This document shows positions 9,864 to 13,983 of a stretch of DNA of 64,000 bases, in pieces (the first letter of the stretch is position 1; each line of letters opens with the position of its first letter). Both the position numbers and the translations under genes were made by a program. The notes under the pieces are model-generated. The model had not been told where the DNA came from, did no database searches, and saw only the letters and a list, made by a program, of their open reading frames with translations. The stretch comes from an uncultured Pelagibacteraceae bacterium (GTDB lineage: Bacteria; Pseudomonadota; Alphaproteobacteria; Pelagibacterales; Pelagibacteraceae), in the NCBI GenBank assembly GCA_902599805.1, contig CACKGP010000002.1, positions 79,570 to 143,569 of the forward strand, read 5' to 3'.

Positions 9864-10450
9864 TATTTTTTAATTTCATCAATTGCATAGCTTAATCTAT
9901 CTTGACCAAAAAAGATTTTTTTATTAACGTAATAAGTGGGAGCACCAAATATTCCTTTTTTTAACGCATCATTTGTTAATTTTTTTAATTTATCCTTAAT
10001 TTTTATATCCGAAACTTTTTCAAAAAAGATACTAGGATTTAAATCTAAATTTTTTAAAACTTTATTAATTATAATATTATCGTTCATATTTAATCCATCT
10101 CTCCAAATAGAATCGAAAATCTTCTCAACATAAATTTTTTCATAATTATCATCCTTTGCAATTATTGCTCCTCTCATAAAATTTACAGTTTTTATTGGAA
10201 AATAAGAATTGAAACTAAATTTGATATTTTTTTTGTTCGCGACTAATTTTGTATCCTGAAACATATACTTAGATTTTATTTTGTTAAATGCCGCTGGTGT
10301 TATACCTGCAGAATTATGAAGTCCACCTAAAAATATTGGCATATATTTAATATGAAAAGGATATTTCTTTTCATACTTTTTAATTTCCTTAAAACCAAGA
10401 AACGCGTACGGACTACTAAAGTCGAAATAAAACTCAATAGATTTAGTCAT
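9863..10450 (-). CDS. 2-hydroxychromene-2-carboxylate isomerase-like DsbA-family protein
   Basis: A 195-aa DsbA/kappa-GST thioredoxin-fold protein. The start IEFYFDFSSPYAFLG carries the SPY active-site serine in place of a CxxC. FGAPTYYV is the cis-proline loop, and FFGQDRL near the end is typical of HCCA isomerases. Family members isomerise glutathione adducts in aromatic catabolism, but many homologues have unknown substrates. No catabolic genes surround it, so the substrate is left open. It is the second gene of the operon running from 10913 to 8390. Confidence 0.82.
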   Translation of the reverse strand: MTKSIEFYFDFSSPYAFLGFKEIKKYEKKYPFHIKYMPIFLGGLHNSAGITPAAFNKIKSKYMFQDTKLVANKKNIKFSFNSYFPIKTVNFMRGAIIAKDDNYEKIYVEKIFDSIWRDGLNMNDNIIINKVLKNLDLNPSIFFEKVSDIKIKDKLKKLTNDALKKGIFGAPTYYVNKKIFFGQDRLSYAIDEIKK

Positions 10451-10913
10451 AATAATTAATTTTTTTTGAATAAAAAATTCTTATTAACCAATACAATACA
10501 AGACCCAACGGACCTGTAAAATAAGTTGTAATTAATGAAATTATTACCAAAGGTCTCGATATTAAAAAGTTTTGCGCATCATTTGCAATCCAATTTCCTG
10601 CAAAAAGATTTATTGTTAAAAAATGAAGCCAAAATATTAATAAAAAACCTTCGTTAGAGTACAAAGAATAAAGTTCATCTAAACCAAGATAAAGATTAAA
10701 AATTTCAAAAATATTCTCTGTTATATAAATTTGATAAGCAATGAAAATATAAGCTGTGGATAATAAAAGTGGAATTATAACTGATTTAACTAAAATTTTT
10801 GTAATTATTGCTCTAGGCAAAAAAATTAATAAAAGCCAACAGGGAATTACACCAATATTTGCAATAAGATAAATATTTTCGTAATTTAAAAATTGTAGAA
10901 GATCATTAATCAT
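10443..10913 (-). CDS. ABA4-like membrane protein (DUF4281)
   Basis: A 156-aa protein with four hydrophobic helices. The second half reads FWLHFLTINLFAGNWIANDA and then a helix with GPLGLVLYWLIR, the diagnostic pattern of the ABA4-like/DUF4281 family. Plant ABA4 is needed for neoxanthin synthesis; the bacterial role is not established. It is the first gene of the minus-strand operon and overlaps the isomerase by 8 bp. It diverges from recX across only ~24 bp, so the promoters must overlap. Confidence 0.75.
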   Translation of the reverse strand: MINDLLQFLNYENIYLIANIGVIPCWLLLIFLPRAIITKILVKSVIIPLLLSTAYIFIAYQIYITENIFEIFNLYLGLDELYSLYSNEGFLLIFWLHFLTINLFAGNWIANDAQNFLISRPLVIISLITTYFTGPLGLVLYWLIRIFYSKKINYYD

Positions 10914-12604: not shown

Positions 12605-13738
12605 ATGATTAACTCTCTAGGGATAAAAAAGTCACCCAAAGATACAAAAGTTGTTGTAGCAATGTCTGGCGGTGTTGACTCTTCAGTAGTAGCAGGATTA
12701 ATGAAAGAACAAGGTTATAATGTTACTGGAATTACACTTAAATTATACGATGACTCAAAAACATCTATTTCTGGAAGACAATGTTGTGCAGGTAGAGATA
12801 TAATTGATGCTAAAAGAGTATCTGAAACATTAAATATAGATCATAAAATTTTATATTATCAAAAAAAATTTAAAACAGAAGTGATTGACTCCTTTATAAA
12901 TAGTTATGTTGCCGGAGAAACACCTATTCCATGTGTTCAATGTAATCAAACAGTAAAATTTAGAGATTTATTTAAATTTTCTAAAGAGCTTAAAGCGGAC
13001 GCACTAATAACTGGACATTACGTATTAAGACATGAGAATAACGGGTCAGGTGTAATGTATAGAGCTGAGGATAAAGAAAGAGATCAAAGTTATTTTCTTT
13101 TTAGCACTACTCAAAGTCAATTAGACTATTTAAGATTTCCGCTAGGTTTAATTAATAAGTCCGAAACAAGAAATATTGCTAATAAATTAAATCTTAATGT
13201 TGCAACAAAGCCTGATAGCCAAGATATCTGCTTTGTTCCTAACGGTAATTATGCTTCTGTAATAGAAAAATACAGACCACAATCATTTAAAAAAGGTAAC
13301 ATATTTAATGTTAGAGGTGAAAAACTAGGAACACATGATGGAATTATCAACTATACAATTGGCCAAAGGAAAGGAATAAAAATCTCAAATCCTGATCCAC
13401 TTTATGTTGTAGATATAAGAGCTCAGGACAACTCAATAGTTGTTGGAACACAGGATTTTTTAAATATTAAAAAACTATTTTTAAGAGATATAAATCTTTT
13501 AGCTGATACTAATAATTTCAAAAATAATGTTTTAATTAAAGTTAGATCTACAGGAAAACTACTTAGTGCCAAAGTACAGATTAAAAACAATTCTGCAGAG
13601 GTAGATATACTACAAGACGAAAAAGGAATCTCGCCTGGCCAAGCTTGTGTTATATATTCAAAAGATAATATTGGTGAAAGAGTTTTAGGTGGTGGTTGGA
13701 TTGAAAAAACTAAAAATAAAAATTATCCACATAACTAA
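12605..13738 (+). CDS. mnmA: tRNA-specific 2-thiouridylase MnmA
   Basis: MnmA thiolates U34 of the wobble position in tRNA-Lys, -Glu and -Gln. The 377-aa protein has the PP-loop [13 protein letters not shown] near residue 19, the first catalytic cysteine in [14 protein letters not shown] near residue 110, and the second in [12 protein letters not shown] near residue 205. A FTIGQRKG-like block (YTIGQRKGI) follows, and the C-terminal barrel ends with SPGQACVIY. An inserted [15 protein letters not shown] segment is common in alphaproteobacteria. A structured RNA lies 60 bp downstream on the same strand. Confidence 0.95.
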
Positions 13739-13799
13739 CAGACAGTAAATTAAAACAACTATAAAGTGATACATATTATTTTAAAATGTAATATTCTTA

Positions 13800-13983
13800 T
13801 TTTGAATTGAGGGGCAACTCTCAACTGGCCAGTTAAGGAAAAACCGAGAGGTTCAAGCTTAAAGGGCAGAAAGTTCCGCTGAGTAGCGCTAAAATAGTGG
13901 AACGGGAGGCTTGGCGGTAGCGCATTAACGACGAGCCAAAACTAAAGTCTGCGCACCGAAAGGTGTGTAGACGGCAGTTTTTT
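13800..13983 (+). ncRNA. structured non-coding RNA of unknown family
   Basis: The gap between mnmA and the next gene encodes consecutive hairpins: TTGAGGG-GCAA-CTCTCAA (13807-13824); AACC-GAGA-GGTT (13842-13853) inside a TTAAG/CTTAA stem (13833-13862); GTTCCGC/GTGGAAC (13873-13903); GGCTTG/CGAGCC (13908-13937); and an 11-bp stem with a GAAA loop (13947-13972) followed by a T-run. Three loops are GNRA tetraloops. Local GC is clearly above the neighbours. There is no open reading frame. I could not match it to tmRNA, SRP RNA, RNase P, 6S or a known riboswitch. The 5' end is estimated. Confidence 0.72.
13938..13983 (+). terminator. intrinsic terminator ending the structured RNA
   Basis: Stem GTCTGCGCACC (13947-13957), GAAA loop, GGTGTGTAGAC (13962-13972), with AAAACT (13938-13943) able to pair with AGTTTT (13976-13981). 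The run of T ends at 13983, just before the convergent gene. Confidence 0.8.

What the first reader, a model, noticed from the sequence alone, without database searches (positions are those of the whole stretch)
13800..13983. Dense multi-hairpin RNA with three GNRA loops and its own terminator, after mnmA
The sequence shows five consecutive stems in about 180 bp, three closed by GNRA tetraloops (GCAA, GAGA, GAAA), with several G-T pairs that keep the stems intact, GC well above the flanks, no ORF, and a perfect intrinsic terminator on the plus strand. In a genome this compact a 250-bp gap is rare and is likely retained for function. It does not read as tmRNA, SRP RNA, RNase P RNA, 6S RNA or a riboswitch I know. 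It could be an independent sRNA or a 3' RNA processed from mnmA.
Basis: partly seen in the sequence, partly recalled or inferred. Interest (0 to 1): 0.75.

Follow-up and report, generated by a model that had tools for sequence, protein, structure and literature searches.

The report
IMES-2 RNA gene of SAR11 bacteria
The folded RNA after mnmA is IMES-2, an already catalogued marine RNA of unknown job; in SAR11 bacteria it is a free-standing gene with its own conserved start and stop signals, and its second half has been swapped between genera.

Summary
In detail: window 13800-13983 (+) holds a dense set of hairpins ending in an intrinsic terminator. The claim that it is unknown is not. It is a full-length match to Rfam RF02035, IMES-2 (153.8 bits, gathering 54.7, E 2.9e-40), an orphan marine RNA family.

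- IMES-2 is confined to the SAR11 family: one copy in 204 of 297 family genomes, and only this family rings among 289 genomes spread over the class. Many near-complete genomes lack it, including HTCC1062.
- It sits in at least four gene neighbourhoods but always carries its own upstream boxes and terminator. It is an autonomous gene, not an mnmA 3' UTR and not a riboswitch.
- The loops of P3 and P4 pair with each other, supported by compensatory changes.
- The P3-P4 module exists as two deep types. Type B occurs in five genera whose flanking genes and P1-P2 domain follow their own genus, so the module has been exchanged (AU p<=1.3e-4).

Biochemical function remains unknown. Best guess: a trans-acting, protein-binding regulatory RNA with a constant 5' half and an exchangeable 3' half.

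The parts
12605..13738 (+). mnmA, upstream neighbour in this and several related genera; not part of the RNA unit
   Evidence: ORF and Pfam PF03054; linkage absent in other genera
13723..13741 (+). Upstream box 1, TTATCCACA-TAACTAACAG: pair of DnaA-box-like 9-mers; the first overlaps the end of mnmA
   Evidence: Best match to TTATCCACA within 0-2 mismatches in 81 of 81 loci, against 15% in shuffles; sequences; position. DnaA binding is not tested.
13756..13771 (+). Upstream box 2, CAACTATAAAGTGATA: probable activator or -35-region element
   Evidence: Consensus CAACNAWAAAGTGATA in all 81 loci, starting 43-46 bases before model position 1; the pattern is found in none of 8 genomes that lack IMES-2
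13789..13794 (+). Candidate -10 element TAATAT preceded by TG; transcription would start near 13800
   Evidence: Family consensus TGnTAnnnT; in this window TG abuts the hexamer, so the fit is looser. Start site inferred.
13800..13939 (+). IMES-2 RNA, model positions 1-141
   Evidence: Rfam RF02035, 153.8 bits, E 2.9e-40
13807..13824 (+). P1 hairpin with GCAA tetraloop
   Evidence: 100% of cells paired, 4 of 7 pairs with changes on both sides
13825..13869 (+). P2 stem with inner P2b hairpin (GAGA tetraloop)
   Evidence: P2 98.2% and P2b 94.8% of cells paired, 11 of 14 pairs with changes on both sides
13873..13903 (+). P3 hairpin; loop bases 13886-13890 (GCGCU) pair with the P4 loop
   Evidence: P3 and kissing pairs counted
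13908..13937 (+). P4 hairpin; loop bases 13919-13923 (AGCGC) pair with the P3 loop. P3-P4 is the exchangeable module (this window: type A)
   Evidence: 98.3% of P4 cells paired; kissing pairs 97.7% paired, 27 double-change cells, 0 of 500 shuffles reach the covariation score; module exchange
13938..13983 (+). Intrinsic terminator hairpin (GAAA loop) and T run, outside the Rfam model
   Evidence: Terminator scan; equivalent hairpin in 68 of 68 distinct homologues with enough sequence

Best explanation
The element is the IMES-2 non-coding RNA gene. Shown here by comparison: it is an autonomous unit (two conserved upstream boxes, a -10-like element, the RNA, an intrinsic terminator) present once per genome in most but not all SAR11 lineages. 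The RNA folds into P1, P2/P2b, P3 and P4, and the P3 and P4 loops pair with each other. The P3-P4 module is exchangeable between genera while the upstream region and P1-P2 are inherited with the genome. Inferred, not shown: it acts in trans as a regulatory RNA, probably in a complex with protein and not through an open antisense seed, with P1-P2 as the constant scaffold and the kissing-loop module as the variable recognition surface.
For: Rfam identity. One copy per genome, SAR11 only. Four or more gene contexts with the same upstream boxes and terminator. Empty site in G003 against a unit of about 290 bp in relatives. Covariation of all helices and of the loop-loop contact. Kissing loops change in step (GCGC/GCGC, GUGC/GCAC, GUAC/GUAC, GAAC/GUUC, GUUC/GAAC), which fits an internal contact better than a fixed external target. 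Module exchange.
Against: No transcript, protein-binding or phenotype data were available. No binding protein or target is known. The gene is dispensable in many species. A minority of g3 members have a weakened loop-loop contact (L046 group, L077, L080). Module exchange could be neutral recombination and need not mean a recognition role.
Confidence: 0.55

Rival explanations
1. A base-pairing sRNA in which the GUAGCGC loop motifs are seeds that pair with mRNAs.
For: Free-standing gene with promoter-like block and terminator, typical of sRNAs; two exposed loops with the same motif.
Against: The two loops covary with each other and change between lineages as matched pairs, which uses them up internally; no other long conserved unpaired stretch is seen in the alignment. 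No target search over whole genomes could be run.
Confidence: 0.2
2. A cis-regulatory element (riboswitch or attenuator) of the gene downstream.
For: In genus g3 an ogt-like gene starts shortly (about 13-60 nt) after the RNA on the same strand.
Against: In the window and in all mnmA-linked genera the downstream gene is on the other strand; in g9 it is SRAP, convergent. No downstream gene is shared.
Confidence: 0.05
3. A 3' RNA processed from the mnmA transcript.
For: 61 nt after mnmA on the same strand in the window; mnmA has no other terminator before it.
Against: Unlinked to mnmA in g3, g7 and g9; own conserved upstream boxes everywhere.
Confidence: 0.05
4. A 6S-like RNA-polymerase regulator that replaces 6S RNA in SAR11.
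For: No RF00013 match in 23 SAR11 genomes, while the same search rings in Caulobacter.
Against: 6S is missing with or without IMES-2, so there is no complementary pattern; the fold is not one long helix with a central bubble.
Confidence: 0.05
5. A DNA element of a replication origin, with the RNA as a by-product.
For: Box 1 resembles paired DnaA boxes and travels with the gene.
Against: No GC-skew switch at IMES-2 in G043 or G009, nor in the window.
Confidence: 0.02

Closest known systems
IMES-2 RNA motif (Rfam RF02035)
   Same: Sequence and secondary structure over the whole 141-position model
   Different: The terminator, upstream boxes, loop-loop contact and module types described here are not part of the Rfam match as reported; whether the original authors drew the loop-loop contact could not be checked
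6S RNA (RF00013)
   Same: Stand-alone structured RNA, one copy per genome
   Different: No RF00013 match; different fold
alpha-proteobacterial tmRNA (RF01849)
   Same: Structured stand-alone RNA, present in SAR11 (found in G026)
   Different: No match at this locus

Membership tests
IMES-2 (RF02035) | Score above the curated gathering score | tested here: met
   153.8 bits against 54.7
IMES-2 (RF02035) | Full-length match to the consensus | tested here: met
   Model 1-141 of 141, not truncated
IMES-2 (RF02035) | Consensus helices formed and supported by covariation | tested here: met
   96.4% of cells paired over 44 homologues, 32 of 41 pairs with changes on both sides
IMES-2 (RF02035) | Transcribed in marine bacteria | not testable with these tools
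   No reads available; expression in marine metatranscriptomes is recalled from memory only
6S RNA | Match to RF00013 and long helix with central bubble | tested here: not met
   No match at this locus nor in 23 SAR11 genomes
tmRNA, SRP RNA, RNase P RNA | Match to the corresponding Rfam model at this place | tested here: not met
   Only IMES-2 and three tRNAs reach threshold in the window
Riboswitch | Consistent position upstream of, and co-directional with, functionally related genes | tested here: not met
   Downstream gene convergent in most genera; no shared downstream gene
mnmA 3'-UTR-derived sRNA | Conserved linkage to mnmA | tested here: not met
   Unlinked in g3, g7 and g9

The most novel reading that the evidence does not exclude
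IMES-2 is a two-part RNA in which a constant promoter and P1-P2 half is combined with alternative P3-P4 kissing-loop modules that are swapped between genera and kept by diversifying selection, so that the module sets the specificity of a trans-acting complex (for instance towards phage or a varying protein partner).
Probability: 0.3. Interest if true: 0.65.

Novelty: already known. Interest (0 to 1): 0.42.

Why it matters
SAR11 are among the most abundant cells in the sea and have few regulators, and IMES-2 is an orphan RNA there. Fixing its host range, gene limits, promoter block, loop-loop contact and two module types turns an anonymous motif into a testable gene, with natural presence/absence pairs. 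Exchange of a domain within a small RNA gene would be unusual if it proves functional.

Tried and rejected
Origin of replication: no skew switch. 6S replacement: no reciprocal pattern. Diverged copies in negative genomes: a broader model built here, R1, found none at a convincing score (best stray 18.9 bits). Phage or viral carriage: no match in phage records, nor in viral contigs with the corrected pattern; the first pattern was off by one base, so its null results are void. A regulon of box 1 or box 2: no shared second site beyond background. An integrase gene stands near many g3 copies, but the same arrangement exists without IMES-2 in G003, so it is not shown to carry the RNA. A first alignment with wrong strands and a failed orientation attempt were discarded.

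Full report
Check of the observation. The plus strand folds 5.5 standard deviations better than dinucleotide shuffles. The three GNRA loops, the G-T pairs and the terminator are present.

Identity. A scan of the whole window against Rfam 15 gives one non-tRNA family: RF02035, IMES-2, window 13800-13939, model 1-141 of 141, 153.8 bits against a gathering score of 54.7, E 2.9e-40 (alignment). The original family papers are not in the library. The one held paper that names IMES-2 is the giant squid genome, PMC6962438, which treats it as likely environmental contamination.

Distribution. In 297 SAR11-family genomes, 204 carry a match, one copy each. In an order-level draw every listed match is in the same family. 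In 289 genomes drawn from the class, only two rings occur, both in the same family. Lower-scoring members (62-94 bits) occur in genera g7 and g9. Many near-complete genomes lack it, and the broader model R1 finds no convincing copy in them. One of these, G026, has contig length 1,308,759 and a tmRNA at 10219-10520. That fits the tmRNA region reported for P. ubique HTCC1062 (10302-10518; PMC2704228); the genome length of HTCC1062 is recalled, not looked up. So the type strain very probably lacks IMES-2, and that paper's list of RNA-rich gaps has no such element.

Autonomous gene. The neighbours differ: mnmA and a convergent membrane protein in the window's genus and several others; DUF2938, a tyrosine integrase or a small ORF on one side and an ogt-like gene on the other in g3; SNase and SRAP in g9; a SelO-like and an RmuC-like gene in g7 (the last two names are my own reading of the sequences). 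Three upstream features go with the RNA everywhere: a DnaA-box-like pair, the 16-bp box CAACNAWAAAGTGATA in 81 of 81 loci at a nearly fixed distance, and TGnTAnnnT near the start. A strong hairpin follows in 68 of 68 distinct homologues with enough sequence. In G003 the small ORF and ogt are 6 nt apart, while relatives hold a unit of about 290 bp between them. These facts exclude a fixed mnmA 3' UTR origin and a general cis-regulatory role. No transcript data were available, so the promoter is inferred.

Structure. On 44 distinct homologues, 41 pairs (36 nested, 5 between loops) form in 96.4% of cells, against 79.8% in shuffles and 32-43% when the partners are slid, with 32 pairs showing changes on both sides. 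The loops of P3 and P4 both carry GUAG plus a short variable stretch, and these stretches stay complementary: GCGC/GCGC, GUGC/GCAC, GCAC/GUGC, GUAC/GUAC, GAAC/GUUC and GUUC/GAAC. Tested alone, four kissing pairs are 97.7% paired with 27 double-change cells, and no shuffle of 500 reaches the covariation score. A few g3 members have a weaker contact. Whether the published consensus already has this pseudoknot could not be checked.

Module exchange. In the RNA tree, members from g1, g2, g4 and g10 (with g6, g11 and g14 nearby) group together against their own genera. The MnmA proteins next to the g1, g2, g4 and g6 members are most similar to their own genus, and so are the downstream proteins where they could be compared. 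Their P1-P2 half is 86-98% identical to their own genus but P3-P4 only 52-65%, against 66-90% with the same type in other genera. A signature of this type B occurs in 9 of 297 genomes from five genera. One member, L309, joins type B P3-P4 to a terminator that resembles those of the type A members L035 and L040, so the exchanged block can be P3-P4 alone. The P3-P4 tree needs one A/B change, the MnmA tree six, and the upstream plus P1-P2 tree eight. AU tests reject the genus clades for P3-P4 (p 1.3e-4 for g4, 2.8e-5 for g1) and reject type B as a clade for MnmA and for the 5' part. The groups were named after the tree was seen, which weakens the p-values but not the size of the contrast. MAG contamination is unlikely because the flanking genes agree with the genus. 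An old polymorphism kept across genera would look the same as recent exchange.

How it most likely works. Shown by comparison: a conserved transcription unit and a compact fold with a loop-loop contact and an exchangeable 3' half. Inferred: a trans-acting regulatory RNA that works in a complex with protein, since the conserved unpaired bases are mostly A-rich junction and loop positions and not an open seed, and the paired loops change freely as long as they match each other. Confidence in the identity is very high; the stated 0.55 covers the mechanism as a whole.

Verdict. A correct observation of an already catalogued RNA family, with structural and evolutionary detail found here that may be new. 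Interest is moderate: the host is abundant and the module exchange is unexpected, but the function is not resolved.

Noticed in passing
window 13723-13741, and the same place upstream of IMES-2 in all lineages: A pair of abutting DnaA-box-like 9-mers (TTATCCACA / YTATTCACA) stands at the left edge of the IMES-2 unit and often overlaps the stop codon of the gene before it.
   Followed up: partly
L004, L012, L063, L065 and other g3 loci, about 350 bp upstream of IMES-2: A divergent tyrosine integrase gene (PF00589) stands near many g3 copies; the integrase-small ORF-ogt arrangement also exists without IMES-2 in G003 and G018.
   Followed up: partly
L309 (G100): Type B P3-P4 joined to a terminator that resembles those of L035 and L040, suggesting that the terminator is a separately exchanged piece.
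   Followed up: partly
L053 (g14) and L055 (g11): A possible third P3-P4 type with GUUC/GAAC kissing loops, near type B in the RNA tree.
   Followed up: no
23 SAR11 genomes searched: No 6S RNA is recognised by the Rfam model in any of them, although the same search rings in Caulobacter.
   Followed up: no
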